NCBI GenBank assembly: GCA_016946835.1 | Contig: JACVTC010000075.1 | Location: 870,043-934,042, forward strand | DNA length: 64,000 nucleotides | Direction: 5' to 3' | DNA from: Neocallimastix lanati (nom. inval.) | Taxonomy: Eukaryota > Neocallimastigomycota > Neocallimastigomycetes > Neocallimastigales > Neocallimastigaceae | Shown: piece by piece, positions 23,110-59,478 of the stretch | Layout: each line of letters begins with the position of its first letter | Position numbering within the stretch: position 1 is the stretch's first letter | The notes under the pieces: generated by a model | Told to the model about the DNA's origin: nothing | Databases searched by the model: none | What the model saw: only the letters and a program-made list of their open reading frames with translations | Translations under genes and position numbers: made by a program

Positions 23110-24071
23110 AATTACTATGTAGGTTAAACTTAGCCCGGAAATCTATATCCAAGGCTTTGTTAAATAATTTAATTAATAAATAATATTAAATTTTATTTTT
23201 CTAATATTCCCCGATATCTCCACCATAAATTATGTTATGGTTCGGGTTTTATTAGAATTTTTATTTAATTTTTTATTTTCAATATTTTTATGTCTACATT
23301 TTAATTATTGAAAAACTTCACTTATTTATACTTTTTGAAAAAAAATAAATATTTAAAGCCTTTCTACATTTTATTATCATATTTAAAAAAAAAATATTTA
23401 CTATTACTAATTACTTAAAATTTTATATTAATTTAAATTAACTAATTCATAAGTATTTTTATTTTAATAAATTTTGTCTATATAATTTTATATTATTTTT
23501 CATATACTAAAACTAAATTATTTAATATATCCGAAAAGTAACAAACAAAATTTAAAAAGATTTTACATAAAAATAAAGTTATTTTAATCAAGAATGTTAA
23601 TATAATATTCTTATATTTTATATAAACTAAATTTAAAAACTATAATATATTTAATATTTATTATTAATCAATTAAGATTTGATTTTATTTGTGGGGAATA
23701 AAAATATTAAATAATCAATTTAAAAATAAAATAAAATACTAAAAAGAATACAAGTTTAATATTGATACAATATAATAATAATATAATAATATATTTGAAA
23801 ATAAAAATAAAATATTAATATTGATAATAAACACTTTAATAAAATAATAAAATTTAAGGTTAAATTATAGATATTGATATTAATAATAAAAATATAAAAT
23901 TATTGATAATATTTTAGAAACTTTTAATAAAAATATAAAAAAAAAATATATTTAGAAAATATTTTAGTATAGAAAATATAGTAAAGTAATATTAAGTAAA
24001 GAATAATATAATGGATTCTAAAGTAAGTTGAAATTCTAATTAATAATCCATTATATGTTCGTTCTTTACCA

Positions 24072-24075
24072 TACT
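24072..24075. other. F/E junction TACT
   Basis: The F LTR ends TTTACCA and the E LTR starts TGTTATGG with only TACT between. The same tetranucleotide follows the E right LTR, so it is E's target duplication and also the base of the stack. Confidence 0.85.
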
Positions 24076-24913
24076 TGTTATGGTTCGGGTTTTATTAGAA
24101 TTTTTATTTAATTATTTATTTTTAATATTTTTCTGTCTACATTTTAATTATTGAAAAACTTCACTTATTTATACTTTTTGAAAAAAAAATAAATATGTAA
24201 AGCCTTTCTACATTTTATTATCATATTTAAAAAAAATATTTACTATTACTAATTACTTAAAATTTTATATTAATTTAAATTAACTAATTCATAAGTATTT
24301 TTATTTTAATAAATTTTGTTTACATAATTTTATATTATTTTTCATATACTAAAACTAAATTATTTAATATATACGAAAAGTAACAAACAAAATTTAAAAA
24401 GATTTTACAGAAAAATAAAGTTATTTTAATCAAGAATGTTAATATAATATTCTTATATTTTATATAAAATAAATTTAAAAACTATAATATATTTAATATT
24501 TATTATTAATCAATTAAGATTTGATTTTATTTGTGGGGAATAAAAATATAAATTAATCAATTTAAAAATAAAATAAAATACTAAAAAGAATACAAGTTTA
24601 ATATTGATACAATATAATAATAATATAATAATATATTTGAAAATAAAAATAAAATATTAATATTGATAATAAACACTTTAATAAAATAATAAAATTTAAG
24701 GTTAAATTATAGATATTGATATTAATAATAAAAATATAAAATTATTGATAATATTTTAGAAACTTTTAATAAAAATATAAAAAAAAAATATATTTAGAAA
24801 ATATTTTAGTATAGAAAATATAGTAAAGTAATATTAAGTAAAGAATAATATAATGGATTCTAAAGTAAGTTGAAATTCTAATTAATAATCCATTATATGT
24901 TCGTTCTTTACCA
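24076..24913 (-). repeat. E element 3' LTR
   Basis: TGTTATGGTTCGGG to TTCTTTACCA, 838 bp, nearly identical to 32838-33676 and to F. A polypurine tract follows (sense GTGGGGGCATCT, plus 24914-24925). The few base differences between the E LTRs point to a recent insertion. Confidence 0.9.
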
Positions 24914-24936
24914 AGATGCCCCCACTAAGACTCAAG

Positions 24937-25887
24937 CTAATCTATAGCTGAGTTATACTTTACTATATTTTTCAAATGAACATTACGATTCATTTGAATC
25001 ATAGTATTTGGGTCCGCAAGTGTTACTGTATTAAATTGTTTTTTTATTACTTTTAAAGGACCGACAAAATAAGGTTCTAATTTAGAACGACTAAAATTTC
25101 GAACAAGAACTAAATCACCGATTCTTATGTTTTTGGAATTTTTCATGCTATTTTTTTCTTCCCTTCGATTGGCCCAATATTTACTTGCGTTCTTTACATT
25201 TTCAGCTGCTTCCATGGTCCACCTATAATGTGAGATAAATTTTTCTAAAAGAATTTCATCTGAAGATTTATTCACTCCTTGTGTAGGTCTAGCAGCAATG
25301 TCGAAAGGCTGTTGATCCTCACGATCATAAACTAATTCGAAGCTAGAATGTTTGGTTACAGAATTCTTTGTAGTTCTAAGGGCCCACAAGGCTGAAGGTA
25401 ATACCTCATCCCAGTCTTTATTTTCTTCACCAAGTAATCTCAATAATTTACCAATTTCTTTATTCCTATTTTCAATCAATCCATTACTTTCTGGGTGATA
25501 GGTAGTGGTAAATTTTACGTAAACATCATATAAGTCCAGGAATATTTTAGTCATATCCGATGTGAATTGAACGCCATTATCCGTTGTAATGACTTGAGGA
25601 ACTCCATGTCTAGCGAAAACATTAATTAAAAACTTAATAATGTCCTTAGATGTAATATTTTCAGTAGGTTCAGCCTCCACCCACTTTGTGAAATAATCCA
25701 CCGCAACAATGATATATTGGTTTTTATTACCAGTCTTTATTAAGGGACCAATAATATCAAGTCCAAGATGAGTAAAAGGGCCTTCAACTTCTGTTGGAAT
25801 GTTTTCGGTTGGTTCTGGATATGGCTGAGGGCGATTTAACTGACATTTTTCGCATTTTGAAATTATCCGTTTTATATCGTTGACCAT
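24937..25887 (-). pseudogene. E pol: integrase
   Basis: 316 aa, in the same frame as the RT-RH piece, separated by one TAA at 25918-25920 (TY-stop-RLRKSYYW, where K and J have Gln). It completes the IN zinc finger (CEKCQ) and carries the core residues in LGLDIIGPL, TTDNGVQFTS and PESNGLIENRNKE. A short C-terminal module (DLVLVRNFSRSKLEPYFVGP) ends the protein, with no chromodomain. The TAA looks like a CAA to TAA change. Confidence 0.85.
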
Positions 25888-25917
25888 ATCATTCCAGTAG
25901 TAACTTTTTCTAAGTCT

Positions 25918-28231
25918 TTAATATGTTTTATAATAACCTTCATGGCCAATATGATGTGCTTCGAGAATTAATTTTAGTTTTTCATTTCTTTCGGTAACAA
26001 GTTTTCTATAATTATTTCCATCTATAAAATAATCTATACCATCAATCTTTGTAAATTTTTCTTCAATAAATTCTTTAATTACTTTAGAAAGTGAATCATT
26101 TTCATCATCTTTATTCGTTTTTATAGCTAATACCTTTTGTTCTTTATCGTTCTTCATTCTAGATAAAGCGTCGGCTACTACATTTTTTTTACCTTGCTCA
26201 TAGCGAATATCCACTTTTAGCATACTTGCAGTCAAACACCATCTTGTTTGTCGTGCATTATTCGGTTCCTTATTATTAAATAAACCTAGTAGAGGTTTGT
26301 GATCTGTAAAAACTATGGTTCTAAAGGGGCTTCCCATAATATAAGGTTTTAATTTAGTAATACAATAATATAAAGCCGTTCCTTCCAAATCGGTTATTCC
26401 ATAATTCTTTTCTGCTTTGGTTAAGCTACGGCTAATGAAATGAATCGGGTGTTCTATTTCCGATTCGTCTTTCTGCAATAAAACTCCACCAATACCTTCA
26501 TATGATGCATCTGTTCGAATAATGAATTCTTTGGAAAAATCAGGATATTTTAAAATAGGAGCATTAATTAATTTTTCTTTTAATTTGGTAAAACTTTGTT
26601 TTTGTTCATTATTCCATCTATATTTTACGCCTTTTCTTAATAGCTTACAAAGAGGAGCTGAGGTTTGAGCATATTCATTTATAAAGTTCCTATAATATCC
26701 TACAGCACCTAAGAATGATCTTAACTCATGTATATTCGTGGGTTCTTTCCAGGCTTTAATTGCTTCAATTTTACTATTTTGAGGACTAAGACCCTTAGTA
26801 GAAATCTTGTGACCAAGAACTTCAACTTCCGTTTGCATAAAGTGACATTTTTCAATATTAATTTTTAATTTATGTTCCTTGAAGATTGCTAATACCTGTT
26901 TTATGTGTTGGATATGTTCTTCGACAGTTTTTGAATATATATGTATATCATCAATAAAGTTGAAAACACATTTTCCGATTAAAGGAAATAAAATTCTATT
27001 CATTTCCCGTTGGAAGGTAGCCGGAGCTCCAGTTAATCCAAAAGGCATAACTTTGAATTGGTAGTTGCCAAATTTGGTTGTAAAACTGGTTATTTCAACA
27101 CTTTCTTCGTCCATTAGGATTTGATGGTAACCTGAGTATAGATCCATAGTAGTAAAGATTTTGGCACCATCTAGACTGTCAAATATCTCGTCAATATATG
27201 GAAGGGCATAAGAGTCTTTTTCGGTTAGATCATTCACCTTGCGGTAGTCCACACACAATCTCCATTTTCCATTAGCCTTTGGGACCACAACAACAGGTGA
27301 AGACCATTCTGAATAAGATGGTACAACTAGCTTTTTCTTAATAAGTTTAATTAGTTCTTCTTTAATAATATCAGATTTAAATTTGGTTACTCTGTAACAT
27401 CTTTGTTTAACAGGTTTTGCGTTCGCTTTCAAGTTAATTATATGAGGGGCCAAGTCTGACGGTGTTAATTCTTCAGAAGATGTCGCTATAATGTCCAAGT
27501 TTTCTTCAAGTAATTTTACTATTACATCTTTATAATCTTTACAAAGGCTTGCTAAAAATTTTTCATCATGGATATACTCTTGCGGAGATAGACCTTCAAG
27601 TTTCTTTAATTCATTAGTTGTGTCTTCATCTTCAAGTATTTTTCTTACTATACATACTAATTTTTCTTCTTCTTGGAAATTATTATTAATAGGAGCTATA
27701 ACGTCGATTAGTCCTAGAGAATTAAATTGACATAAACTATATCTTATAGGATGGATAAAAAGATTGTGTTCTACTTGAGTTTGAAAATTAATCAACAAAT
27801 CATAAAATGGGTCATCATCATCAATTATACGAAAATCTACTATCATTTTATAATCATTAATCTTAACAGGTATTCGTACAATAATTCCTTCTGAATACTC
27901 ATCATTCTTAGTCGCTAAACGTATCCTTCCACGACTAATACCTACTTCTTCATAATTTCCAGGTAATTTCTCATAAAATTTTTTTGTGATAACATTGAGA
28001 TTGCTACAAGAATCAATTAGTGCTTTACCAGGAATTTCATCTACTGTTACATCAACCATGGCAATATCTTCTTCTGAGGTTTCCTTACTTTTGCTAATAT
28101 AAGAGTGATCAATATTATTTACCAAAGTAGCAGCAGCAATAGTATTGTTTAATGCACCTATTATTTTCTTTTCAGGTTTTTCTAATTTTAATCCTTGACT
28201 TACTTGACTTCTGACTTTTGGAGAAACATTG
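25918..28231 (-). pseudogene. E pol: protease, RT and RNase H
   Basis: The ORF starts formally at 28125, but the frame is open to the S4 insertion at 28231. The protease turn reads DSCS (ALIDSCSNLNVITK) instead of D-T/S-G. RT has KWRLCVDYRKVND, TTMDLYSGYHQI, MPFGLTGAPATFQ and FNFIDDIHIYS with FIDD as catalytic centre. RH has IRTDASYEGIGG, GITDLEGTA and FTDHKPLLG. It ends at a TAA inside the IN zinc finger. Only this stop and S4 interrupt pol. Confidence 0.85.
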
Positions 28232-28856
28232 TGTAAAGATTTAATAAATCTTTAATACATTAAATAGCTTAATTTTTCGTACAATTAATTTATTTAATGT
28301 ATATGAATTATTTTTTTAATATAAAATTTATTGAAATAAAATTTAATTATTTTTTTAATTGAAAATATTTTTTAATTAGTTTAGTTAATTTAGTTTAGTT
28401 TTAAATAGTTAAATATTAATTTAGGAATAATCTTAAATAGTTAATATTTATAAAAATAGTTTTTCAATATTAAATATATAATTAAAATTATTATAAGTAT
28501 TAAAATAATAAATAAAATAAAGAGTTTAAAAAATTAATTTTAGTTTTAGTAAATTAATAAATAATAAAAAATTATTAATTAAAAAATCTTTTGTTTATAA
28601 ATAAATAGTTTTATATATATTATTAAATAACATCATATATTAATATTGTAATAAGAAAAAATATAAATACATGTAATTTTTCTTAATTTAATCGATGTAT
28701 TAGTTATTAACTATTTTACAGTTAATAACATAAAAGAAGTTTATAATTAATAAAAGAGTTTATTAATAAAAGAAATTACTTTAATTTTATTTGTTTAAAT
28801 TGTAGTGTTTTTTTTTATTGTTATAATCTGTTTTTTTTATTGACGGATTCATTACA
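28232..28856 (+). mobile_element. S4: solo LTR inserted in E pol
   Basis: TGTAAAGATTTAATAAATCTTTA to GGATTCATTACA, 625 bp, with CATTG on both sides (28227-28231, 28857-28861). It is in the opposite orientation to E and is related to S3 by its TGTAAAG start and terminal hairpin. It splits the conserved stretch FGQLLNV/SPKVRSQVSQGLK of pol. Confidence 0.88.
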
Positions 28857-29679
28857 CATTGAGGAGCTGACCGAAACTAATATTACACTTGGTTTCATTC
28901 AAATCTTGTAAAACATCATATTCTTCCTGATCCTTACACATCTTGATGTTCCTAAGCGTTCTACTAATTGTTGCTTTTTCTTTAGGTTCTTGAAAATCTA
29001 TGAGCTTCTGTAATGTAATATTCTCATGACCTTCGTCATTAAGCTTTTCAGGAACTTCAATAACTTCCATTTCATTGATTTGTTTTGTTTTAATAATTTT
29101 ATCGTTTTCATTATCGATTAATTTATTTAATCGTTGATGCATTTTATCACTAGTAGTACTGATGCTATTTCTTTGTTTTGAAGAATCCAGACTTTGCTTT
29201 TCTCTTATAGTAATATTATCCTCCCTTTCCTTCCTTTTTCCCTTGTTATTTCCAAAGTTAGCTCTTTCTTTATTCCGAATTTGTTTTTCTTTGGCTTTCT
29301 CAATATTTATATTAGGCTGCCCCATTATCGAAGGATGTAGTTGATTTTTATTTTTAACAATTATTCTATTTTCTATTTCCTTCTCTTTTATCTTTCTTAT
29401 TGCAGGAGTTGTTATAGGGGTTGGATTATCTTTGAGACTTTTACGTTGTCTCTTTTCATTATTTTCACTAGTTTCATCGTTAGTCGTCAACTTCCTTTTT
29501 GTCGCACTAACTATAAATTCTACATCATTCTCATTATCGGATTCTTTGTGAGTTTCATTAGTATAGGAAGCATCTTCTTTTTCTTCCTTATTATAATCAT
29601 TTGTACTACTAGGAATGAATTTGTATTGTAATGAAGCTATTTTATTTTTATAGGGAGTGCTTCCTCTCCCTTTTAGTGG
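28852..29679 (-). pseudogene. E pol N-terminal part
   Basis: This frame is entered by -1 frameshifting at 29679 (PLKGRGSTPYKNKIASLQYKF); the first Met is only at 29490. It is acidic, then Lys/Arg/Asn-rich, with PITTPAIRKIKEKE and HPSIMGQPNINIEKAKEKQI, conserved in J and K. The function of this domain before the protease is unknown to me. The frame runs into S4 at 28856. Confidence 0.75.
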
Positions 29680-29685
29680 TTTAAA
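29633..29685 (-). promoter_or_regulatory. E gag-pol -1 frameshift signal
   Basis: Sense: slippery T TTA AAC in the gag frame (plus 29679-29685), 8-nt spacer containing the gag stop, and stem GGGAG/CTCCC (29653-29670). The loop motif GAAGC can pair with GCTTC downstream (29633-29637), giving an H-type pseudoknot with an A-rich second loop. The -1 frame from 29679 is exactly in register with the ORF starting at 29490. Confidence 0.85.
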
Positions 29686-30566
29686 GATTTTCCACTATAT
29701 AACCGTTTCTTATTTTCTTGAATAATTGCATTTAACTTAGGACAATTATACTGCAAATGTCCTGGATCGCTACAATAAAAACAGGCTTTAATGGTAAGAT
29801 TTTTCATTTTTTTTGTTAAGTCCTCCAATTCATAATCTTTATTTCTTTTTGGGGTTCTAACTTCATAATTCTCCCTTACTACTTTTCTGTTGTTTTGATA
29901 ATTATTCCTGATATTTATTCTTGGGTTGACAATTTCAGTTGAGTACTCTTTTGAGGGTCTCAAATTCATAACTCTATCAACCTTTTCGGCAATGTCAAAC
30001 GCCCGATTTAAAGAAATGTCATCCTTAAGGGAGACCCTTTTCCAAGCTTTTTCATTGTTCCTAAGAGCATCAATATAATCGAGAACACTGACTCGCTTCT
30101 TTCTTTTCTTATCTAATTTCAAATATATGGATCGGAAACGAGTATTAAAGTCTTTTACTCGCTCATTTCTTTTAATTCTTAAGGCACGGAGCTCACGAAG
30201 TAACATATTCTGGTCTTCTTTAAGACCATAAAAAGTTTCTAGTGCTTCTACAATTTCCTTTAAGGAAGGATATTCATCTTTTTTCTTTTCTTCTGAATCA
30301 GATTCTTCTTCTTCTTCGTCCTCACTTTCTGATTCAGAATCGGTACTGTAACTGTCAATTAAATCCTGGATAACTTCGCGAGGCTCTCCAGTAGACGTGA
30401 GTAAGCAGGCGGTAAAAATCTTTTTGGGATCAGTAACTTCCTCAAGTTTTATCCATAATCGGATTTCTGATTCCCAAGATTTGATATCGAGATTTTCCTT
30501 TGAAATTTTCTCGATATCTTTTAATTCTTTTTTTAATTCTTTAAAATTGATTTTATTTTCAGCCAT
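29673..30566 (-). CDS. E Gag
   Basis: I place the start at 30566 (MAENKINFKELKKELKDIEK), matching the K start MASVTNDTTNVPSFKDLKKELK; an upstream in-frame ATG at 30605 adds 13 unlikely residues. A helical Gag core (IKSWESEIRLWIKL, TACLLTSTGEPREVIQDL), an acidic Ser/Glu run and LRELRALRIKRNERVKDFNTRFR follow. The CCHC zinc knuckle is CFYCSDPGHLQYNC. The ORF ends SLNH-stop inside the frameshift signal. It packages the RNA and supplies the particle. Confidence 0.85.
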   Translation of the reverse strand: MAENKINFKELKKELKDIEKISKENLDIKSWESEIRLWIKLEEVTDPKKIFTACLLTSTGEPREVIQDLIDSYSTDSESESEDEEEEESDSEEKKKDEYPSLKEIVEALETFYGLKEDQNMLLRELRALRIKRNERVKDFNTRFRSIYLKLDKKRKKRVSVLDYIDALRNNEKAWKRVSLKDDISLNRAFDIAEKVDRVMNLRPSKEYSTEIVNPRINIRNNYQNNRKVVRENYEVRTPKRNKDYELEDLTKKMKNLTIKACFYCSDPGHLQYNCPKLNAIIQENKKRLYSGKSLNH

Positions 30567-30685
30567 TTGAAAATTTAAAAATGGTATTAATGCTATGATA
30601 TCCAATTTAAAAATATGTTTACTTTAAAAATATATTTAATAACAAAAAAAAATAAATTTATCTTTGTTTTATAATAATATAATTA

Positions 30686-30857
30686 TGGACTCAGAAAACC
30701 CTCTGACAATCCAATTCTTTATTCCAATAATAATTCAGACTCAGAATCTCTCTCTGAAAATCTGATAAATTAGTTCAGACTCGAAAACACCCTTCGAAAA
30801 TCTGAAACTAAAAAAAAAATTAAAATTCAGACTCAAAAACGCAATTTGAAAATCTGA
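30686..30857 (-). other. Array of four hairpins before E gag
   Basis: Units at 30686-30713, 30735-30765, 30775-30805 and 30827-30857 share one fold (plus strand): outer stem, CT, 4-bp inner stem, 6-7 nt loop, then AAAA or ACAA. Outer arms are TGGA/TCCA once and TCAGA/TCTGA three times. Inner arms are CAGA/TCTG, CAGA/TCTG, CGAA/TTCG and CAAA/TTTG. Pairing is kept while sequence changes, as expected for a selected RNA structure. Confidence 0.75.
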
Positions 30858-31069
30858 AGCTTTTTATTATGAATTTTAATGTTTATTATATTCTCTTAAG
30901 CATTAATACACAAAATATGTATATCTTAATCTTTTTTTAAATTTATTTGTAGTAATAACTTCTTTATTTAATTTTATTTAATATATTTATTTCCTTTATT
31001 AAAATAATTAATATAACATAAAACAAATTGTATAAATACTTAAATAATAATAATAATATATATTTATTT

Positions 31070-31101
<32 letters not shown>

Positions 31102-32089
31102 TTTGTATATATTTATATTCTATTAATTCTTTGTTATAATATTTAATAAAATATTAAATAAAAAGTTAAAATACAAGCCAAACTATATAGTGTTGAACCA
31201 TCAAATATATAGCTTGTTAACCCTTCTTACAATAAGTCCCCTTAGCTCTTTATTGATAAGTTGATAATGTCGATTGTTAATTATTAAGAAACTTAATAAA
31301 AAGAAGGTAGCAATATTAAATTCTTTTTAATTTGGCTAACTTATTGTTAGTAATAAAGAAGATAATAACGTATCCTTCCCAGTATCAACAAGATCAAAAC
31401 AATAAAGTATTATGTGTGGGTGTTCAACTATCCCGCGTAGAGAGTTGTAAGACAGCTTATTTATATTTTTCTTTTTAATTAAAATTTAATTAATTATATA
31501 TAACGAATAATAGAAAACTTAACACACACAAAAAAAAATTTTCAATTATAAAAATTTCAATAAAAAAAAAAATTTAATTATATAAAATCATAAAAATAAT
31601 ACACTTATTTGAAAAATAATAATAATAATCTAATTTTATATATTCTATATATATATATTGTACATGTATATATAAAAAAAAATAAAAAAATTACAATTTA
31701 TTATTTAGAATTATTAATATAAAAAAAAAAAATTTATTTATAAAATTTATTCTTATTTAAAAAATAAATTAAAAATTGGTACTACAAAAAAAAAAAATTT
31801 TTGCTTATTATTTTAATATTTATCATTAACTAAAAAAATATTTTTTTTTTTTTACATATATAAATCTATATTTATGATAATACTATTGGTTAAAAAAAAA
31901 ATTTTTTTTTTTTTTTTTTTTTTTAAAAAAGTTTGTTCTACACTAAAGAAAAATTTAATTTATTATTTATTAAAAAAAAATTTATTAATGAAATATTTAT
32001 TATTTTAATAAAAGGAAAAAAATATATATATATTTTTATTTTATTGCAAAAAAAAAAATAATAATAATAGGCGAACAAATTTATAAAAG

Positions 32090-32410
32090 CCTAAAATAAA
32101 AATAAAAAAACTATATATTTTAACGTCACTTCGCAAGAATGACTAGGGTTTTATCAGGGATCGAACCTGACCCACCTCTTATTTTCTGCGCGAGTGAACA
32201 AACTATCACCTGTTGAAGTGTATAGTTGCCTTCAGCGTGAAGGTTTTATAGTTCTAGGGCGTATTTGCCTAATTGTCAAGGATTTGTTCCTTGAGATACT
32301 CGCGTTTACAATCTACAAAACCTTGCAAAATTGTAAATAAGAGTTTATGAAATTAATATCCTGCAAGCTAACACTGTCTTACTCGAATATTAACTTCGTA
32401 AATTTGTTAA
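32090..32410 (-). other. GC-rich structured leader domain, E copy
   Basis: This near-identical copy of 22480-22800 contains the same stems and the T-arm-like hairpin. Because F and E are the same family, the similarity alone does not prove function. Confidence 0.45.
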
Positions 32411-32494
32411 CTTTTTATTATCTTTTTTATTATTATTTTTTTTATCTATAATCTATAATTAAATAAAGTTACTACAAAAACTAAAGTTTTCCAA

Positions 32495-32530
<36 letters not shown>

Positions 32531-32605
32531 ATAACTTTTATTATTAATAATATTAATATTAAATTATTAATTATTATTATTTAACAAAACTTATGGATAA
32601 TCTGA

Positions 32606-32714
32606 TAGTATACCCTGTCTGACGTGCAGCTTGCCTCTTCACGGTGTCATGCCACGCGGGTACCACGGCTACTGTATTCAATATAAAATACAGCAGTCCA
32701 GAGCCTACTAGCCC
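32606..32714 (-). other. Leader structural module, E copy
   Basis: Same blocks as at 23001-23109, with one base change (GGTGTCATG for GGCGTCATG), and the same order as the divergent C copy at 5155-5270. Confidence 0.6.
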
Positions 32715-32813
32715 AATTACTATGTAGGTTAAACTTAGCCCGGAAATCTATATCCAAGGCTTTGTTAAATAATTTAATTAATAAATAATATTAAATTTTA
32801 TTTTTCTAATATT

Positions 32814-32830
32814 CCCCGATATCTCCACCA
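32814..32830 (-). other. E primer binding site
   Basis: The plus strand reads CCCCGATATCTCCACCA, which would be the 3' end of the priming tRNA. It lies 7 nt inside the 5' LTR. The same 17 bases occur in F (23209-23225) and K (57681-57697). Confidence 0.75.
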
Positions 32831-32837
32831 TAAATTA

Positions 32838-35820: not shown

Positions 35821-35823
35821 TAC

Positions 35824-36503: not shown

Positions 36504-36509
36504 AATACT

Positions 36510-43957: not shown

Positions 43958-43990
43958 TGCCCCTCTGTTTAAGTCGAGCCCCTGAGCGAC

Positions 43991-48835: not shown

Positions 48836-49812
48836 TGTAAAATAAAATAATTATCAAGTCTAGGTTTGTGGCTATTCTAAACTAACTTTACTACACTAAT
48901 AACACTATATCTTAAAACCTCTATTATTTAATTAATTATTTTCTTTTTTAATTTCTTTTATTTATTTATTTTATTTATTAACTAATTTTCAACAACCACT
49001 TAACTGGGTAACGCAGGGTCCTTTCCGGAGTTCCCACTAGCAGTTAAGGTTTTACAAACTATAATATAATTGTTTTATAAGAAAGTAACTATTCTAATAA
49101 TAGTTACGAAACTAATAATAAAATTTAAATTTTCCTATTCTATACGATTTTCCAACTATCGTTCAATAGTTGAAAAATTAACTCTTTTTATACTTTTTCA
49201 AAATAAAGTTTTAAATCAAAATAAATTTTAATAAATTACATAAACATATTATTTTATATTATCAATTACATTATTTAATAAATTACATGAAATGTTATGA
49301 ATTATTTTAATATAAATCCTATTTAAAACTATCTAATTTTTCTAAAATTTTCTATGAAGAAAATTTAGAGTTTAATTCATTAATTATATGATTAAATATA
49401 TTCTATCCATATATTTAATTTAAATTTTGCCAAGTTGTGAAAACCAATTTACTAAACCACAACTTGCTATTTTTATTTTTAGAATTTCTATAATTTAAAA
49501 GACAAGTAAACAAAACGGCAAGTTTTTGTAAACAAACGGAAAAGGCAATATTCCTTTAATTATTTTAATTTAACTAATTAATGACTAATTATTTTTTAAT
49601 TTATGAAGTTTCGTGATTCAACTGAGTAATTGTTACGTAAATTCTCCAAATAATTTAGTCATAAATTTTTGAGAAAATTATTTAAATTAATAATTTGGAA
49701 TACATTTAAATTTATATTAAAAATTTGGAAAACATTTTTATCCACAATAATTTACATTACATTACATTTAAATACGTATTCAAATTATTAAATATTTTAC
49801 AAATATTTTACA
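48836..49812 (-). repeat. I element 5' LTR
   Basis: 977 bp, partner of 42981-43957. It carries the element's promoter and the predicted RNA start. Confidence 0.92.
49147..49192 (-). promoter_or_regulatory. I core promoter and predicted transcription start
   Basis: TATAAAAA on the minus strand (plus 49185-49192) lies about 35 nt before AGTTGGAAAAT (start at 49157). The start is inferred from the primer site: the self-primer must be the RNA 5' end. Confidence 0.6.
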
Positions 49813-49817
49813 ATATG

Positions 49818-49827
49818 AACCATACCA
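49818..49827 (+). mobile_element. J': solo group I LTR, part 2
   Basis: AACCATACCA completes the J' LTR after the I insertion and its ATATG duplication. TACT and then the K LTR follow. Confidence 0.75.
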
Positions 49828-49832
49828 TACTT

Positions 49833-50897
49833 TGTTATGGTTCGAGGAATTCAAAAAAAAAAAAAAAATTATATAATATTAAAACACAAAAAAAAAAATT
49901 TTATTCTTTCACAATAATTTTTATTTATTTATTATATTTTTATTTTAATTTTTATTTTATTTTTATTATTATTTTTATTTATTTATTTTATTTTTATTTT
50001 ATTTTTATTATTATTTTTATTTATTTATTTTATTTTTATTTTATTTTTATTATTATTTTTATTTATTTATTTTATTTTTATTTTATTTTTATTATTGTTT
50101 TTATTTATTTATTTTATTTTTATTTTATTTTTATTATTATTTTTATTTATTTATTTTTTTCCCTCCCCTAAAAAGGGGTTCCAAGGTAGTCAATTTATAT
50201 CTTTTTGAAGATATAAAAGTAGCAAAGCCTCTGGAAGTAGTTGAAGAGATGGAAAAACAATAGATTTTTAAATCTTATTGATTATTTCCTTATTGTAATA
50301 AATAGAAATTTTATTATTTCCTAATATTCAAATTAACCAAAATAAATCTATAATATAAAAGATGCATTATAGATAAGAATTAAACAAAAAAAAAGAGAAG
50401 CAGTATTACAATAAAATTGAATACTTTAACTTAATTTTGATACTAATTTAATATGTAATCTTATATATTAATTTGAATGACATAATAGAAAATAAAATAC
50501 ATTTATTAATATATGAAAAATCTTTTACAATTTTAAATACAGAAAATTTTATTTTATTTATTTCTTTCATTTCAATTATTTCTTAATTCGAAAGACAGAA
50601 ATATTGATAAAGTTATTTAAGTTGTTTATATACAGGAATTATTCCTTATTTAGAAAAATAATACTAAAAGTAATTAGTACTATGTTATTGCTAAACTCTC
50701 ATAAATTTAATTTACCTTTATAAGGAATGAACATAAATTTAAATTAAATTTTATGTATAAACTTAAATTTTCAGATCAAATAATATAGTAAAATTATTAA
50801 TGTAAAGAATACATAAATTTATTAATATTTTAAAAATCACCTTGACTATATTAAAAGGTTTTTAATAAGAATCAATTTATTACTTCATTCTTTATCA
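49833..50897 (-). repeat. K element 3' LTR
   Basis: TGTTATGGTTCGAGG to CATTCTTTATCA, 1065 bp, partner of 57705-58685. ACTT flanks the element (49829-49832, 58686-58689). The polypurine tract follows (sense AGCGGGGGCATCG, plus 50898-50910). It contains a 42-bp tandem repeat, five units against three in the other LTR, which accounts for the 84-bp length difference. Confidence 0.9.
49915..50160. repeat. 42-bp tandem repeat in the K 3' LTR
   Basis: About five copies of an A/T unit built from TTTTTATTTATTTATTTTAT and TTTTATTTTATTTTTATTAT. The other LTR has about three copies (57785-57947). A 148-aa plus-strand ORF here is only the repeat read through. Confidence 0.85.
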
Positions 50898-50920
50898 CGA
50901 TGCCCCCGCTAAGACTCAAG

Positions 50921-53900
50921 CTATATTGTAGCTGAGTTATATTTTACTATAATTTTGAGGTGTACATTCCGATTTAATAATATTCCTGAATTTGGATCAG
51001 CTAACGTAACTGTATTAAACTTTTTCTTGATTACTTTTAAAGGTCCATTAAAATAAGGTTCTAGTTTAGTTCTACTAAAGTTTCTAACTAGGACTAAATC
51101 TCCCTCCTTGATTTCCTTAGCCTGATTCATACTTTGTTTTTCTTCTCGTCTAACAGCCCAATATTTATTTGCATTTTTCACATTTTCTGATGCTTCTATG
51201 GTCCATCTATAATGAGATATAAACTTTTCCAATAGAATTTCATCAGAAGATTTATTTATACCTTTAGTCGGTCTTGCAGCTATATCAAAAGGTTGTTGGT
51301 CTTCACGACCATAAACTAATTCAAAACTAGAATGGTTAGTGGTACTATTTTTAACAGTTCTTAAAGCCCAGAGAGCAGAGGGTAATACCTCATCCCAATC
51401 TTTATTTTTTGTCCCAAGCAATCTAAGGAGTTTACCAATTTCTTTATTACGATTTTCCGTAAGTCCATTAGATTCGGGATGATATGTTGTAACAAATTTT
51501 ATATATACATCATATAGATCTAAAAATATTTTAGTCATTTCTGATGTAAATTGGGCACCATTATCGGTGGTAATTACTTGGGGAACTCCATGACGAGAAA
51601 ATACGTTAATAAGGAACTTAATTACGTCTTTAGAAGTGATATTTTCAGTCGGTTCTGCTTCTACCCACTTAGTGAAATAATCAACAGCTACTATTATATA
51701 TTGATTATTACTTCTAGTTTTAACCAGTGGACCGATAATGTCCAAACCAAGATGTACAAAAGGTCCTTCCACTTTAGTAGGTAGATTTTCTGTAGGCTCT
51801 GGATAAGGTTGTGGTCGATTTAATTGACATTTTTCACACTTACTGACAACACGTTTAACATCATTCACCATGTCGTTCCAATAATAACTCTTACGTAAAC
51901 GTTGATAAGTCTTATAATAACCATCGTGTCCAATATTATGAGCCTCTAATATTAATTTTATTCTTTCATTAAGATCGGTTACTAATTTTCTATAATTGTT
52001 ACCATCAATAAAGTAGTCAATACCATCAATAGTGGTGAATTTTTCATTGATAAAATCATGTATTACTTTGGATAATAAGGCTTCATTTTCATCATTCGTA
52101 ATATCATGGTTAATTATTTTCGTAGCTAAAACTACATTTTCTTTATTATTTTTCATTCGGGATAGGGCATCAGCAAGCACATTCTTTTTACCGGTTTCAT
52201 ATCTAATGTCTACACCAAGCATACTAGCTGTCAAACACCATCTAGTTTGCCTTGCATTATGTGGTTCCTTATTTTTGAACAACCCTAGTAACGGTTTATG
52301 GTCCGTATATACAATAGTTGGTATTGGATTTCCATCTATATACGGTTTTAATTTAGTTATACAATAATATAGGGCAGCACCTTCTAGGTCTGTTATACCA
52401 TAATGCTTTTCTGCTCTGGTCAAACTTCTACTAATAAAGTGAATAGGGTGTTCTTTTCCAGTTTCATTATCTTTTTGTAATAACGCACCTCCTATTCCAT
52501 CATAAGAAGCATCGGTACGTATAATAAATTCTTTATCAAACTGAGGGAAACTTAATATGGGTGCATTTATTAGTTTTTCTTTCAGTACTTCAAACGATTT
52601 TTGGTGTTCACTAGTCCAAACATACTTCACACCTTTCCTTAATAATTTACACAAACACGCAGTAATTTGTGAATATTTATCGATGAAATTTCTATAGTAT
52701 CCAACAGCTCCTAAAAATGAACGTAATTCATGGATGTCCTGAGGGGGTTTCCAATCTCTGATAACCTCGATTTTACTATCAAGAGGTTTTAAGCCTTTAG
52801 TGGTTAATCTATGCCCCAAAACATTCACTTCTGTTTTCATGAAGTGACACTTTTCAATATTAAGTTTTAATCTATTTTCTTTGAGTATGGATAAAACTTG
52901 TTGAATATGTTGGAGGTGTTCTTCAACTGTTTTAGAGTATATAAGTATATCATCGATAAAATTATAAACACACTTTCCTATTAAAGGAAATAGGATTCTA
53001 TTCATTTCTCTTTGAAAGGTTGCAGGAGCGTTGGTTAAACCAAATGGCATAACTTTAAATTGGTAGTTACCAAACTTAGTGGTGAAAGTTATTATACCAA
53101 TACTTTCTTCCTCCATTAAAATTTGGTGATATCCAGAGTATAAGTCAATGGTAGTGAAGATAGTTGCACCATTGAGACTATCAAAAATTTCATCAATGTA
53201 TGGTATAGAATAAGAATCCTTTATAGTAGAATCATTAACCTTCCTATAATCTACACACATACGCCATTTCCCATTAGGCTTTGGTACTAGAACAATAGGC
53301 GAAGACCATTCAGAATTTGAAGGCTCAATTAACTTTTTATTAATTAACTTAGTTAATTCTTCCTTTAAAATATCTGTCTTTAATTTTGTTAGCCGATAAG
53401 CTCTTTGTTTTATAGGTTTGGTACCAGCTTTTAGATTTATTTTGTGTGGTGAAAGCAATGATGGTGTTAATTCCTCAGACGACGTAGCAACAATTTCTAT
53501 ATTGTCCTCTAATAGGTGTATTATATCAGTTCTATATTTATCATTTAGAGTATTCATAAATATTGTATTATGTATATATTCCATAGGTGGTAATCCTTCT
53601 AATTTCTTTAATTCCCCATCAGCATATTTTTCCTTACTATTATCCTCAAGTAATTTGTTAACACTACAAATATATTTTTCGTCAATTGCAGAATTATTTA
53701 TTGGTGTAATAGAACTGATAGTACCATCCATGTTATATTTACATAAGCAATTATTTAAGGGATTAATAAATAATCTATTATCAACTATAGTTTTTAAATT
53801 AATTAGCATGTCATAAAATGGTTCCTCTTTTTCTACAATTCGGAAATCAATTAACAATGAAAGCTCATTAATTTTCACAGGTATCCTAACGACTATTCCT

Positions 53901-54355
53901 TCAGAGTATTCATCGTCTCTAGTGGCAAGCATTATTCTACCACAACTATGACCAACAACGGTATATTGGTATGGTAGAGAATTATAATATTTTTGTGACA
54001 TAATATTTAAATTACTACACGTATCAATAAGTAATTTTTCAGATACACCATCAACAGAGGCATCTACCATTGCAATATCCTCCTCTGTTATTTCTGTACT
54101 TTTACTTTTATAGTTATGATCAACATTATTAACTAATGTTGTAGTAGCAACTACATTATTAATAGCGCCAACAACATTAGTGGTGGCTTTTACTAGTTTT
54201 AAACCTTGGGAAACTTGACTTCTTATTTTAGGCGCAGCATTCCAAAGCTGTCCAAAGGTAATATTACACTTGGTATTGCTTAAATCATCCCATACATCAT
54301 ATTCCTTATAATTAGAAAGCATTTTAATAATTCGATTTACCCGAGGTATTTTCAT
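50921..54355 (-). pseudogene. K pol: protease, RT, RNase H, integrase
   Basis: A 1144-aa open frame. FGQLWNAAPKIRSQVSQGLK precedes the protease, whose turn is DTCS (111-114). RT has KWRMCVDYRKVND and YNFIDDILIYS (FIDD 466-469). RH has IRTDASYDGIGG, GITDLEG and YTDHKPLLG. IN has the full finger (HNIGH, CEKCQ) and core (LDIIGPL, TTDNGAQFTS, PESNGLTENRNKE). It ends with VRNFSRTKLEPYFNGP, and there is no chromodomain. All catalytic residues are present. It is out of frame with its N-terminal part at 54505-55122, so one indel in the AAT/A-run region breaks pol; this could also be a sequencing error. Confidence 0.85.
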
Positions 54356-54590
54356 ACTATTATTATTATCATTATTATTATTATTATTAATACCATCTGT
54401 ATTAATTAATTTATTTAATATATTTTTATTATTCGTTACATGATTATTATCGATAATAGTTTCATTATTATTAATATTAATAGTATTATTATTATTATTA
54501 TCATTTACGACTGGGGTTTTTCTAATAGTTCCGTTGTTACTATTATTAGGATTACTAGTATTATTATTATTATTTTTGTCTTTTTTCTTT
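54356..54590. repeat. AAT-rich microsatellite region in K pol
   Basis: Runs of ATT/AAT encode poly-Asn in one minus frame and poly-Ile in another. The pol frame changes here, by a length change in the repeats or in the A-run near 54580-54595. Confidence 0.7.
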
Positions 54591-55122
54591 CTCTAGTTTG
54601 GTTAATTTCCCTTGGAGCTTCTACATTATCAACTTTTGAAGTTATTTCCTCTTTATTAGTAATTAAGTTTACATTAGACTGACTGGATGATGCATTTTCG
54701 AATTCTTTAGAATTAGTACTAGATTTCAAAAATCTTTCTTTATCACGTATTGCTTTTTCAATTTTCTTTTCTTTATTGATATTTGGTTGCATAATTATTG
54801 ATGTTTGCAACTGTTTCTTATGAGGTATCACCTCTTCAGTTTCCAATTCTCTTTCTTTTCTTTTTCTTAATGCAGGAGTGTTTATAGGTCGTGGATTATC
54901 ACGTAGGTTTTTATGAATTTTCCTTCCTTTTCCATTATCTAACTCAACATCACTTTCATCAAGTTTTCTTTTTGCCGCACCGACAAAATATTCTCCTACC
55001 TGATCATGACTTTTGATAGTATAATCCACTCTGTAGTCTTTACTTTCTGCATCAGAAGAATTGGAAGTATATTTTAATGAAGCTATTTTTTTGATGGGAG
55101 TGCTTCCTCTCCCTTCTACTGG
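54505..55122 (-). pseudogene. K pol N-terminal part
   Basis: Entered by -1 frameshifting at 55122 (codons for PVEGRGSTPIKKIASLKY); the first Met is at 55029. It is Lys/Arg/Glu-rich with RPINTPALRKRKERE and IIMQPNINKEKKIEKAIRDKER, conserved with E and J. It ends in poly-Ile from the AAT repeats, the wrong frame, confirming a break. Confidence 0.7.
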
Positions 55123-55128
55123 TTTAAA
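55079..55128 (-). promoter_or_regulatory. K gag-pol -1 frameshift signal
   Basis: Slippery T TTA AAC (plus 55122-55128), 8-nt spacer with the gag stop, and stem GGGAG/CTCCC (55096-55113). The loop GAAGC can pair with GCTTC (55079-55083). Frames of gag (56075) and pol (55029) fit -1 slippage exactly. Confidence 0.85.
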
Positions 55129-56075
55129 GGTCCTTTGGAAAAAATCTGTTTCTTATTTTCTTCTATAATGGCTTGTAGTTTGGGACAATGTTGTTGATAA
55201 TGTCCAGGTTCCTTACAGAAGAAACAGGTTTTGACGGTAGAGTTTCTTGGTCCACGTGTAAGGTTCTCCCTTTCACTTTCATCAGAAACTTTCCTATTGT
55301 CCCTGTTTTCATAAGTATTTCTTGGTGGTGAACTACGACTCTTATTATAATTATTATTATTGTTGTTGGAAACATTTCTATTAGGACTTGGTACACGATG
55401 TAACCTCACAGCAAGTCTATCCACTTTTTCTGCAATTTCATAAGCCTTTGAAAGTGGTATATCATCAATTAAAGTTACTCGTTTCCAGGCCTCAATATTA
55501 TTCTCAAGTGCATCAGCATAGTCCAAGATACTGATTTGTTTTTTGTGAGTTTTATCTAATTTTAAATATAATGTCCGATATCTTTTATTAAAATCCCTTA
55601 CTTTTTCATTTCTACCAATTTTAAGAGCACGCAATTCCCTTAATAAGGTATTCTGATCTTCCTTTGCCCCATAGAATACTTCAAGAGCGTTGACGATCTC
55701 GACAAAGGAAGGATAACGGTTAGTTCTAACACTATCATTACTAGAACTACTTGAACTAGTAGAGCTACTGGTGCTAGATCCTGACATCTCACCAGTATCA
55801 GTGGAACCATTCAATTCTACATCTTCTTCTGCTGTAGTAGCAGGTAGTTCTAATTCTTGGATAATTTGTCTTGGTTCACCAGTAGACGTTAATAGGCAAG
55901 CAACAAAAATAGTTTTTGGATCAGTGATATTTTGTAATTGGATCCATAACTCAATTTCAGAAGCCCAAGATTTTATATCCAAATGGTCCTCGTTTAATTT
56001 ATCAACATATTTTAGTTCCTTTTTAAGATCTTTAAATGAAGGAACATTAGTAGTATCATTAGTAACTGAAGCCAT
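55116..56075 (-). CDS. K Gag
   Basis: Start chosen at MASVTNDTTNVPSFKDLKKE (56075) by alignment with E; an ATG at 56120 is upstream in frame. The Gag core has IKSWASEIELWIQL and VACLLTSTGEPRQIIQEL. A Ser/Thr-rich acidic linker replaces the Glu-rich one of E. The CCHC knuckle is CFFCKEPGHYQQHC. It ends PLNQ-stop in the frameshift site. Intact. Confidence 0.85.
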   Translation of the reverse strand: MASVTNDTTNVPSFKDLKKELKYVDKLNEDHLDIKSWASEIELWIQLQNITDPKTIFVACLLTSTGEPRQIIQELELPATTAEEDVELNGSTDTGEMSGSSTSSSTSSSSSSNDSVRTNRYPSFVEIVNALEVFYGAKEDQNTLLRELRALKIGRNEKVRDFNKRYRTLYLKLDKTHKKQISILDYADALENNIEAWKRVTLIDDIPLSKAYEIAEKVDRLAVRLHRVPSPNRNVSNNNNNNYNKSRSSPPRNTYENRDNRKVSDESERENLTRGPRNSTVKTCFFCKEPGHYQQHCPKLQAIIEENKKQIFSKGPLNQ

Positions 56076-56137
56076 ATTTCTTGAGTAGAAATTATACAGT
56101 AATATAGGTAAAATATTCAAAATAAAAATAATAATAT

Positions 56138-56168
<31 letters not shown>

Positions 56169-56453
56169 AGTATGTTATAGATATATATAATATAGTATTA
56201 GAATTTATAAGTTTACAAACACTTCAGAGATTAGAAAAAAAAAATAGGTAAGTTTACAAACACTTCAGAGATAAAAAAAAAAATAAGTAAAATTTTTTTT
56301 TTTTGTTTTTTTTTTTTTTGTTTTTTTTTTTTTTTGTTTTTGTTTTTGTTTTTGTTTTTGTTTTTTTTTTTGTTTTGTTTTATTTTGATATCCAAGATTA
56401 AAATATTTTATAATTATTGTTTATTAAATTATATCTTTATAGTTATTTATATG

Positions 56454-56662
56454 AGGTTCGAAATACACTTCGACCACCTACAAGAAATATATTTTTAGGT
56501 TCGAATAACACTCGACCACCTAAGGAAATTTTATATTATTGGTTCGAATACCTTTCGATCACCAATAGAAGATATAATTATATTAAGGTTATAAGCTCGA
56601 ATGACACTTCGACCACTTATAATGATAATTATTTGGTTCAAGATACACCTCGACAACCAAAT
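56454..56662 (-). other. Array of five hairpins before K gag
   Basis: Units at 56454-56479, 56496-56522, 56539-56565, 56589-56622 and 56631-56662 share an inner TCGA(A)/(T)TCGA stem, a loop like ATACAC and a CC or TC step. Outer arms change in pairs: AGGT/ACCT, TAGGT/ACCTA, TTGGT/ACCAA, TTATAAG/CTTATAA, ATTTGGTT/AACCAAAT. The last unit has a weaker inner stem. It occupies the same place as the E array but has a different sequence. Confidence 0.75.
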
Positions 56663-56746
56663 TAAACAGGTAGTAAAAAAAAAAATATAGTAGTCTTTCT
56701 TCTTTGGCTCAATTTCACTTACCCACAGAGTAAGAACAGTAAACAA

Positions 56747-56794
<48 letters not shown>

Positions 56795-57587
56795 CAGTAC
56801 ACTAGAATTTCTTATATGTAGCACGGAATAAATTAATTGCTAAATTAAAAAAATTAATATGGAAAATTTATAAATATTTCTTATATATATATTATTAGCT
56901 TTATATTATTTTCGGATCCGCAGATTCTTTACAGGGCCGTTCGACCTCCACTATTGAACCGTCAGAATAGTGAATATAACAGAGTAGTGTGTGCCTGTAC
57001 GAACACGGGACCTTACCACTTTTTCTATTCTGTTATCACTTGTATCACTAAACCTTATTCAATAATGCTCTACTACCTCCCTATGTGTAAAGCAATCCTT
57101 CTCCTATTCTCTAATATAAACGTCTAATTTTTATATCTATATATATCAACAGTCTTGGTATCAATATATAAATACTATATATATGTATATATTTATAAAT
57201 TTGAATTTATAATTTCAATTATAATATAATTTAGTCGATAATATAAATACGAATTACTATATACACTTAATTGTAACAAAGCCTTAAGCTAAGGAGTTTT
57301 TCATCCAACAGCCGCCGATTACAATAAGTTATAAATTGTATAAAAGTATTCTTATATTAATGAATAAATGTATAATATAATTAAATTATTATTCTTACTA
57401 ATTAGTACTTGACAGGAATAAATATTTCAAAGTTTTATATCACACTGTTTCTCTTGCACAAACAGAAATATAACAACTTTGTTGAATGAAATTATTTATC
57501 CAATTAATATAGTAAGGACGTAGGTGCTACTTTAAATTATTAATATTTATTTATGTATATATTATATTTCTATATTATTGTAAAAAA

Positions 57588-57632
<45 letters not shown>

Positions 57633-57680
57633 AAATAAAATTATTGTGTATGTTTTAATATTAGTTTTTAATTTTGAAAC

Positions 57681-57697
57681 CCCCGATATCTCCACCA
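57681..57697 (-). other. K primer binding site
   Basis: Plus strand CCCCGATATCTCCACCA, identical to E and F, 7 nt inside the 5' LTR. Confidence 0.75.
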
Positions 57698-57704
57698 AAC
57701 TTTA

Positions 57705-58685
57705 TGTTATGGTTCGAGGAATTCAAAAAAAAAAAAAAAAAATTATATAATATTAAAACACAAAAAAAAAATTTTATTCTTTCACAATAATTTTTATTTA
57801 TTTATTATATTTTTATTTTAATTTTTATTTTATTTTTATTATTATTTTTATTTATTTATTTTATTTTTATTTTATTTTTATTATTATTTTTATTTATTTA
57901 TTTTATTTTTATTTTATTTTTATTATTATTTTTATTTATTTATTTTTTTCCCTCCCCTAAAAAGGGGTTCCAAGGTAGTCAATTTATATCTTTTTGAAGA
58001 TATAAAAGTAGCAAAGCCTCTGGAAGTAGTTGAAGAGATGGAAAAACAATAGATTTTTAAATCTTATTGATTATTTCCTTATTGTAATAAATAGAAATTT
58101 TATTATTTCCTAATATTCAAATTAACCAAAATAAATCTATAATATAAAAGATGCATTATAGATAAGAATTAAACAAAAAAAAGAGAAGCAGTATTACAAT
58201 AAAATTGAATACTTTAACTTAATTTTGATACTAATTTAATATGTAATCTTATATATTAATTTGAATGACATAATAGAAAATAAAATACATTTATTAATAT
58301 ATGAAAAATCTTTTACAATTTTAAATACAGAAAATTTTATTTTATTTATTTCTTTCATTTCAATTATTTCTTAATTCGAAAGACAGAAATATTGATAAAG
58401 TTATTTAAGTTGTTTATATACAGGAATTATTCCTTATTTAGAAAAATAATACTAAAAGTAATTAGTACTATGTTATTGCTAAACTCTCATAAATTTAATT
58501 TACCTTTATAAGGAATGAACATAAATTTAAATTAAATTTTATGTATAAACTTAAATTTTCAGATCAAATAATATAGTAAAATTATTAATGTAAAGAATAC
58601 ATAAATTTATTAATATTTTAAAAATCACCTTGACTATATTAAAAGGTTTTTAATAAGAATCAATTTATTACTTCATTCTTTATCA
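57705..58685 (-). repeat. K element 5' LTR
   Basis: 981 bp, TGTTATGGTTCGAGG to CATTCTTTATCA. Nearly identical to the 3' LTR apart from two fewer 42-bp units. ACTT (58686-58689) then separates it from the J LTR. Confidence 0.9.
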
Positions 58686-58689
58686 ACTT

Positions 58690-59478
58690 TGGTATGGTTC
58701 ATATAATTTTAGGAATATAATAATAATTAACACAAATAATAAAATTACAATAAAAAAAAAATAATTTGTTTTAAAATTAATATTTATTTATTTAAATTTA
58801 TAAAAGAAAAATAATAATATAATTATTTATTTAATAAAAAGAAAGTTATTGATTATATTTTATTTCACTAAAATTACATGTATTTATATTTTTTTATCAA
58901 ATTAAAATTTGTAAAGCCTAACTATTTTTTTAATAAACTAATTACTAATTATTTTTATAAATATAACATTTAAAATGAAATTGAATTATTATTTTAGTTA
59001 ATAATATTATTGTTATAAATAGTAGTTATATATTATTGAATTATTAATTATTTAATAATAGTTTAATACTAATATATATAAAATAAAAATAAAGAGATTA
59101 TACAGAATATTTTATTGTGGTTTAGTTAAATTTAGTAATTAAAAATAAATTTAAATTGATAACGAAAATTTTAATAACTAATTAAATAGATTTGATTATT
59201 TTCAATATAACATAATACAAAAGAAATATAATATTAATATATTAAGTGGGCAAGGACAATATTCTTGGCTAAAGATTTTTAATACATTATAATGGAATCG
59301 GATCGATAATTCAAAAAGGAATTATAAGTTAATTAGTGATTTATTAACTTAAGATTTCTATTTAGTAATATTTGAAGAATATTGGAAAGTTCCAATTATA
59401 TAGAATAGAATAATCTATAAGGTTAGAATAATTTATATTATTCTAGCACAATTAGTATTATTTGTTCATTCTGTATTA
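58690..59478 (-). repeat. J element 3' LTR
   Basis: TGGTATGGTTCATAT to ATTCTGTATTA, 789 bp. The polypurine tract follows (sense AGCGGGGGCATCT). The sense start is TAATACAG rather than TGATACAG, and J' has the same TA. The 5' LTR lies outside the window. Confidence 0.85.

What the first reader, a model, noticed from the sequence alone, without database searches (positions are those of the whole stretch)
23233..59478. Group I retroelements stacked end to end with one shared tetranucleotide between neighbours
Read directly: F, E, H0a, H0b, H1, H2 and J' follow each other as ...CA-TACT-TG... (24072-24075, 33677-33680, 35093-35096, 36506-36509, 40119-40122, 41715-41718 and 42202-42205, 49828-49831). 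K sits between J' and J with ACTT on both sides. C and L are joined by AATT, which also ends L. Each tetranucleotide is the target duplication of the element beside it, so each newcomer seems to have integrated exactly into an existing element's duplication. Because three different tetranucleotides occur, the integrase probably recognises the LTR/flank junction rather than a fixed motif. I know of no described Gypsy lineage that builds such stacks.
Basis: partly seen in the sequence, partly recalled or inferred. Interest (0 to 1): 0.92.

Follow-up and report, generated by a model that had tools for sequence, protein, structure and literature searches.

The report
Retroelement stacks docked at tRNA genes
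In what looks like a gut fungus, several families of retrotransposons insert within a few bases of the same spot just upstream of tRNA-type genes, so newcomers pile up in stacks that share one short joint; targeting tRNA genes is known, but such deep piling-up at so many of the genes sampled is unusual.

Summary
From 24072 to 58689, ten junctions between neighbouring LTR elements all lie inside the same ATACTT hexamer. It is a genome-wide habit: in 46 of 78 intact outer LTR ends of two families another TG end starts exactly 4 bp away (background 2.8%), with 27 different tetranucleotides. Of 39 sampled tRNA units, 32 have a known LTR terminus 12-21 nt upstream (control offset 4 of 32). Copies lie between an older element and a tRNA gene with one duplication on both sides, and duplications show the newcomer on the gene side in 6 of 6 decidable cases. 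Best explanation: Ty3/DGLT-A-like integration at the Pol III start site; each insertion pushes older copies outward, so a stack repeats the start-site letters of its gene. A chromovirus uses a second offset about 15 bp further out, in the window too. No tRNA is in the window; the contig ends on the predicted gene side, so this stack's own gene is inferred, not seen. Known kind, extreme variant.

The parts
22242..24071 (-). F: one end of an E-type element (LTR 23233-24071), left part replaced by other sequence
   Evidence: 96% match to 31841-33680; LTR ends
24076..33676 (-). E: Gypsy element, LTRs 24076-24913 and 32838-33676 (7 substitutions), TACT at its left end, TAC(T) at its right
33680..34558 (.). 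H0a1: solo LTR, 5-bp duplication CATAC at 33675-33679 and 34559-34563; its first copy includes the CA end of E
34565..35092 (.). H0a2: short element with TACT on both sides
35097..36505 (.). H0b: element (or elements) between TACT sites; right end resembles a terminus found beside a K-family copy
36510..40118 (.). H1: TGATACGGG..CCCGTATCA element with internal tandem repeats, TACT on both sides
40123..41714 (.). H2: shorter relative of H1, TACT on both sides
41719..42200 (.). S: solo LTR of a family found elsewhere as direct LTR pairs; duplication ATACT
42206..49827 (.). J': inverted solo LTR of the J family (42206-42980 and 49813-49827), interrupted by V; TACT on both sides
42981..49812 (-). 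V: chromovirus, LTRs 42981-43957 and 48836-49812 identical, one 1570-aa Gag-Pol frame with chromodomain, duplication ATATG; ends 15 bp from the J'|TACT joint
49833..58685 (-). K: Gypsy element without chromodomain, LTRs 49833-50897 and 57705-58685 (no substitutions, 4 indel events), ACTT on both sides
58690..64000 (-). J: Gypsy element, left LTR from 58690 to 59478 or a few bases less, runs off the contig end
24072..24075 (.). F|E joint TACT
49828..49832 (.). J'|K joint TACTT (TACT duplication of J', ACTT duplication of K)
58686..58689 (.). K|J joint ACTT

Best explanation
Several LTR families of this genome integrate at a fixed distance from a Pol III gene, at the start site about 12-18 nt before the mature tRNA. 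The first copy duplicates the letters there. The next copy is guided by the same Pol III complex to nearly the same bases, so it lands between the older element and the gene and duplicates the same letters. Repetition builds a stack that grows on the gene side, and each gene's stack has its own tetranucleotide. Shown by sequence: LTR termini at tRNA start sites; equal duplications on both sides of copies lying between an older element and a gene; gene-side order in the decidable cases; insertions at sites without an LTR neighbour; an empty site with the stack letters. Inferred: that the guide is TFIIIB/Pol III as for Ty3, and that the window's TACTT stack was built on a gene beyond the right contig end.
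For: Termini 12-21 nt upstream in 32 of 39 tRNA units, control 4 of 32. TG at 4 bp in 46 of 78 flanks with 27 tetranucleotides. 26 of 37 two-flank copies have equal 4-bp duplications; in 24 of these an element end lies exactly 4 bp away, in 7 one side is a tRNA or tRNA-like gene, in none both; tRNAs confirmed by covariance model in 8 of 18 fetched stretches. S copies: gene-side duplication carries the older neighbour's terminal bases in 6 of 6 (five with 2-5 bases, one with a single T). Empty site TGTAACGAAATCTT-CAGT-TAGTAAAATT-AGAACTTTGG at C93 against CAGT stacks on the same flank at C122 and C246. V lies 15 bp from the tetranucleotide in 6 of 6 measured places, the window included, and 29 bp from the gene at C93 and C555. 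In the window LTR ages and duplications agree with growth to the right.
Against: No tRNA in the window, and C208 does not reach one; so this stack's gene is unseen. 7 of 39 tRNA windows have no library terminus. 11 of 37 two-flank copies have unequal flanks. 6 of 65 distinct flanks adjoin sequence that I could not identify. Gene-like flanks at L009, L028, L037, L209-L213, L215 and L221 have A and B boxes by reading only; the tRNA model does not find them. The tRNA sample is best-scoring, often identical copies, and no Pol III factor was tested.
Confidence: 0.88

Rival explanations
1. One reading: the integrase recognises the joint between an existing LTR end and its duplication and inserts there, whatever lies beyond.
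For: Gap of exactly 4 bp in 46 of 78 flanks; long stacks; in many copies both neighbours are elements.
Against: LTR termini at tRNA start sites; insertions with no LTR neighbour; gene-side order in 6 of 6, where this idea predicts either side; gaps of 2, 3, 5, 6 and 8 bp also occur.
Confidence: 0.06
2. Both act: the Pol III complex positions the integrase and the CA/TG edge of the older element sharpens the choice of base.
For: The peak at 4 bp (46 of 78) is sharper than the spread of LTR-to-tRNA distances (12-18 in 31 of the 32 matched units), though that spread is between different genes.
Against: Nothing here separates it from a precise Pol III ruler acting repeatedly on one gene.
Confidence: 0.2
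3. Stacks arise by recombination between LTRs, template switching, or misassembly, not by repeated integration.
For: F and E share 5 of 7 LTR differences, so exchange between copies happens; some contigs look like alternative versions of one place (C208 and C721).
Against: Neighbours are of different families and orientations, with duplications of their own; the pattern recurs in 38 distinct flanks with 27 tetranucleotides.
Confidence: 0.04
4. A fixed 4-bp target motif, as in piggyBac.
For: ATACTT recurs through the window stack.
Against: 27 tetranucleotides among 38 distinct flanks.
Confidence: 0.01

Closest known systems
DGLT-A of Dictyostelium (Ty3/gypsy, no chromodomain)
   Same: No chromodomain; sits 13-33 bp, on average 15 bp, before tRNA genes; several elements may follow each other at one tRNA gene (PMC5006619, passages). 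Here 12-18 nt in 31 of 32 matched units.
   Different: That paper counts 20 DGLT-A insertions in D. discoideum and about 60% of tRNA loci targeted by TRE elements (passages); here 32 of 39 sampled units carry a known LTR terminus and stacks reach more than 34 kb. No tree was built, so kinship is untested.
Ty3 of Saccharomyces
   Same: Integrates at the Pol III start site (PMC5911963, PMC8632968, PMC7175516, passages). The K integrase aligns to Ty3 integrase.
   Different: Ty3 makes a 5-bp duplication and has an integrase chromodomain that touches Brf1 (PMC8632968, passages); E, K and J make 4-bp duplications and their integrases end after the C-terminal domain.
Tyl3, Ylt1 and Tyl6 of Yarrowia
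   Same: Ty3-gypsy elements about 5 bp upstream of tRNA start sites (table in PMC5911963, passage).
   Different: Stacking is not mentioned in the passage that I saw; sequences were not compared.
Skipper chromoviruses of Dictyostelium
   Same: Chromodomain, like V; Skipper-2 is tied to tRNA genes (PMC5911963, passage).
   Different: Skipper-2 lies downstream of tRNA genes; V lies 29 bp upstream at C93 and C555.
P elements and bacterial IS that insert beside their own ends (recalled, no call)
   Same: Tandem copies that share a duplication.
   Different: There the element's own end is the target; here the evidence points to a host gene.

Membership tests
Ty3/Gypsy LTR retrotransposon (E, K, J) | pol order RT, RNase H, integrase | tested here: met
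   K protein: RVT_1 436-596, RNase H 659-788, H2C2 875-927, rve 958-1039; E and J pol match K in DNA at 72-73%
Ty3/Gypsy LTR retrotransposon (E, K, J) | direct LTRs with a short target duplication | tested here: met
   LTR pairs for E and K in the window; 4-bp duplications in 26 of 37 two-flank copies; J only one LTR in the window
Ty3 proper | integrase chromodomain after the C-terminal domain | tested here: not met
   K aligns to Ty3 integrase up to residue 1443 of the 7q5b chain and its frame ends 6 residues later; E and J end alike by reading; no Chromo hit for K.
Ty3 proper | 5-bp target duplication | tested here: not met
   4 bp for E, K and J
Ty3-like start-site targeting (works like) | insertion at Pol III start sites | tested here: met
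   position only: 32 of 39 units, 12-21 nt upstream; start sites were not mapped
DGLT-A | no chromodomain, about 15 bp before tRNA genes | tested here: met
DGLT-A | common ancestry with the dictyostelid family | not tested
   no tree built
Chromovirus (V) | chromodomain at the integrase C-terminus | tested here: met
   PF00385 at 1518-1562, 34.1 bits, cut-off 25.1

The most novel reading that the evidence does not exclude
In this genome Pol III genes act as one-way docks for many LTR families at once: successive copies enter at nearly the same start-site bases, push older ones outward and build stacks of tens of kilobases; most tRNA genes now have an LTR edge as their upstream region; and a chromovirus reads the same complex at a second fixed offset about 15 bp further out. 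The chromodomain-less Gypsy integrases must then reach the Pol III complex by a route other than Ty3's chromodomain.
Probability: 0.5. Interest if true: 0.75.

Novelty: new variant of a known kind. Interest (0 to 1): 0.6.

Why it matters
Stacks record the order of insertions letter by letter and so give a relative clock for many families at one site. The high share of sampled tRNA units with an LTR edge at the start site makes testable whether Pol III genes keep working when their upstream DNA is replaced again and again. Two offsets (start site, and about 15 bp further out), in families without and with a chromodomain, allow a test of how integrases find the Pol III complex outside yeast.

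Tried and rejected
Fixed 4-bp motif: rejected (27 tetranucleotides). Junction recognition: kept as a rival. DNA-transposon reading of S (inverted-repeat-like ends): rejected because copies pair in direct orientation 2.6-2.8 kb apart; for H1 and H2 not settled. V as an untargeted control: failed as a control, it looks targeted too. Anchor gene in C208: its J copy matches the window only to 63607 and then joins another element, so no anchor. Far end of the C122 stack: the stretch fetched (C122:154000-155600) holds a K-family LTR and pol, not the stack's end. An apparent tRNA-Thr with a 95-base intron inside E-type sequence was not found by the covariance models in the window and is taken as spurious. 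A box/B box scan of the window gave B-box-like strings without A boxes. A genome-wide count of gap lengths did not complete. Paper searches for stacks or shared duplications; for gut-fungus retroelements. I saw listings of all of these, and passages only of PMC5911963, PMC5006619, PMC8632968 and PMC7175516; no listed title described such stacks, and no whole paper was read.
Full report
Names. In my notebook and scripts other letters were used (notebook J = K here, L = J here, K = V here, H2 = S here, H1 = the family of H1 and H2 here).

Setting. The window is the last 64 kb of a 934-kb contig in a 199-Mb assembly of 762 contigs. It is 76% A+T. The K polyprotein is 73% identical over 59% of its length to a protein labelled Orpsp1_1, a label that I recall as Orpinomyces sp. 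C1A, an anaerobic gut fungus. The species was not identified.

The stack. Ten joints, F|E, E|H0a1, H0a1|H0a2, H0a2|H0b, H0b|H1, H1|H2, H2|S, S|J', J'|K and K|J, read TACT, TAC, CATACT, TACT, TACT, TACT, TACT, ATACT, TACTT and ACTT (for H0a1|H0a2 the script's boundary was two bases off and the joint is read from the sequence printed in the same output). The letters are windows onto ATACTT, with CATACT where a duplication copied E's CA end. E, K and J are Gypsy elements whose pol regions match at 72-73% in DNA. S and V have 5-bp duplications, E, K and J 4-bp ones; H0a1 has 5 bp in the window.

Genome-wide test. For 30 E-family and 30 K-family LTR loci (of 41 and 42 matches listed; 40 of 1812 and 40 of 915 first-look candidates were scored) there are 120 flanks: 38 internal, 78 outer with an intact LTR end, 4 dropped because the end was not intact. 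TG stands at offset 4 in 46 of 78, at offsets 2, 3, 5 and 6 in 10, 11, 6 and 8; background 2.8%. After collapsing equal 40-mers it is 38 of 65, with 27 tetranucleotides. By my reading the other 27 distinct flanks are: 14 with an element terminus at another small gap (one of them a TA terminus at 4), 5 with a tRNA or tRNA-like gene, 2 with a TGTAACGAA flank, 6 unidentified. The same tetranucleotide recurs between CA and TG on the neighbour's far side in 11 of 39 distinct flanks (one, L049, in low-complexity sequence) against 3.5% with permuted tetranucleotides.

Tie to Pol III genes. Small windows beside J- and S-family copies showed tRNA genes a dozen or so bases beyond the LTR. I therefore looked from the other side. 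The tRNA model gave 63 scored hits out of 9278 first-look candidates. I fetched upstream DNA of 20 of those hits, all tRNA-Arg, of 17 of 40 listed tRNA-Gly matches and of 2 of 40 listed tRNA-Leu matches. Nine Arg genes follow a tRNA-Asn and seven Gly genes a tRNA-Cys (names by reading); there the upstream of the first tRNA was used. A library of 40 termini, from the window and from neighbours of E-, K- and J-family copies, matched (at most 4 of 18 mismatches) 12-21 nt upstream in 32 of 39; at a shifted offset in 4 of 32, seven windows being too short for the control. Some of the 7 misses (for example L190, L205) look like LTR ends to the eye but are not counted. The sample is not random: it holds best-scoring, often identical genes.

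Order of insertion. Of 37 E-, K- and J-family copies with two outer flanks, 26 have equal 4-bp duplications and 11 do not; a few rows are probably one place in two contigs (L017/L019, L058/L059). In 24 of the 26 an element begins exactly 4 bp away on at least one side (exceptions L056 and C753, at 3 and 6 bp); in 7 of 26 one side is a tRNA or tRNA-like gene, in none both. Ten of the S-family LTR pairs were examined: nine have 5-bp and one a 4-bp duplication. In six, one side is a gene (tRNA model hits in L214, L216, L217, L218; tRNA-like by reading in L210, L215) and the other an element; in all six the gene-side duplication contains the terminal bases of that element (TG, TG, T, CA, CA and TGTAA; the single T is weak), so S came later and lies between. 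One S copy, C5:623933-627098, has the tRNA-like gene on one side and the flank TTTCGTTACA on the other, with no LTR neighbour.

A before-and-after case. At C93, beside a V copy, the flank reads TGTAACGAAATCTT-CAGT-TAGTAAAATT-AGAACTTTGGTTCAATGG with no LTR between. At C122 TGTAACGAAATCTT-CAGT is followed by an H1-family element, CAGT, another element, CAGT and an E-family LTR; at C246 an E-family copy adjoins the same flank at CAGT. The stack letters are those of the empty site. The gene at C93 has A and B boxes by reading but is not found by the tRNA model.

Second ruler. V ends 15 bp from the tetranucleotide in 6 of 6 places measured by script (window, C93, C90, C285, C677, C429). At C90, C285 and C677 the tetranucleotide was taken as the four bases before the next element's start; counted to CAGT, as at C93, C90 and C677 would give 16. 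C24, by eye, gives 14. V ends 29 bp before the gene at C93 and at C555, where the gene is a tRNA by the model. Of 10 V copies looked at, 3 had no equal duplication. In the window the 15 bp run to the J'|TACT joint, so I infer that J' lay next to the gene when V came in, and K followed. K and V LTRs have no substitutions, E has 7, which agrees.

The window's own gene. H0a1 carries E's CA, S carries the A that ends H2, K and J are shifted one base to the right, and the younger LTRs are on the right; all this puts the gene to the right of J, beyond the contig end. It is not in the window, and C208 does not show it.

Comparison. Ty3 integrates at the Pol III start site with cuts at -6 and -2 (PMC8632968, passages). 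DGLT-A has no chromodomain and lies on average 15 bp from the tRNA, and a footnote mentions later elements at the same tRNA gene (PMC5006619, passages). The K integrase aligns to Ty3 integrase through the C-terminal domain and then ends; E and J end alike by reading. It works like Ty3 and DGLT-A. I do not file it under Ty3, since the chromodomain and the 5-bp duplication are not met, nor under DGLT-A, since no tree was built.

Verdict. Known kind, extreme variant.

Noticed in passing
L209-L213, L215, L221, L009, L028: tRNA-like genes with A and B boxes (by reading) that the tRNA covariance model does not find; several share 3' sequence, like a tRNA-derived SINE family. They are targets too.
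   Followed up: partly
L003, L013, L081, L088, L094, L104, L135, L225: A recurrent TGTAACGAA motif just outside the start-site tetranucleotide of some Pol III-type genes; V copies cut within or beside it. It may be an upstream promoter element.
   Followed up: partly
G000:C555:301725-352112: Many identical tRNA-Arg genes, partly about 540 bp apart, in one contig; tRNA genes look strongly amplified (9278 first-look candidates, 63 scored).
   Followed up: no
L168-L171, L173-L175, L182, L184; L189, L190, L196-L199, L202, L217: tRNA genes in closely spaced pairs (read as Asn-Arg and Cys-Gly), with LTR-type ends before the first tRNA only, as if transcribed together.
   Followed up: no
24076-24913, 32838-33676, 23233-24071: At five of the seven sites where E's two LTRs differ, F's LTR agrees with E's right LTR, which suggests exchange between copies.
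   Followed up: no
6871-13263: Composite element with TCAAA on both sides, 350-bp direct repeats and a further inverted copy, holding a 1382-aa Gag-Pol frame; it splits the AATT joint of the other stack.
   Followed up: partly
37062-39900: Long tandem-repeat array (spacings of 13, 28 and 41 bases) inside H1; related copies in the genome differ in repeat length.
   Followed up: no
L016, L063, L134; L021; L022; L025-L027: Repeated or single flanks beside LTR ends that I could not identify; two kinds recur at different places and may be further target genes.
   Followed up: no
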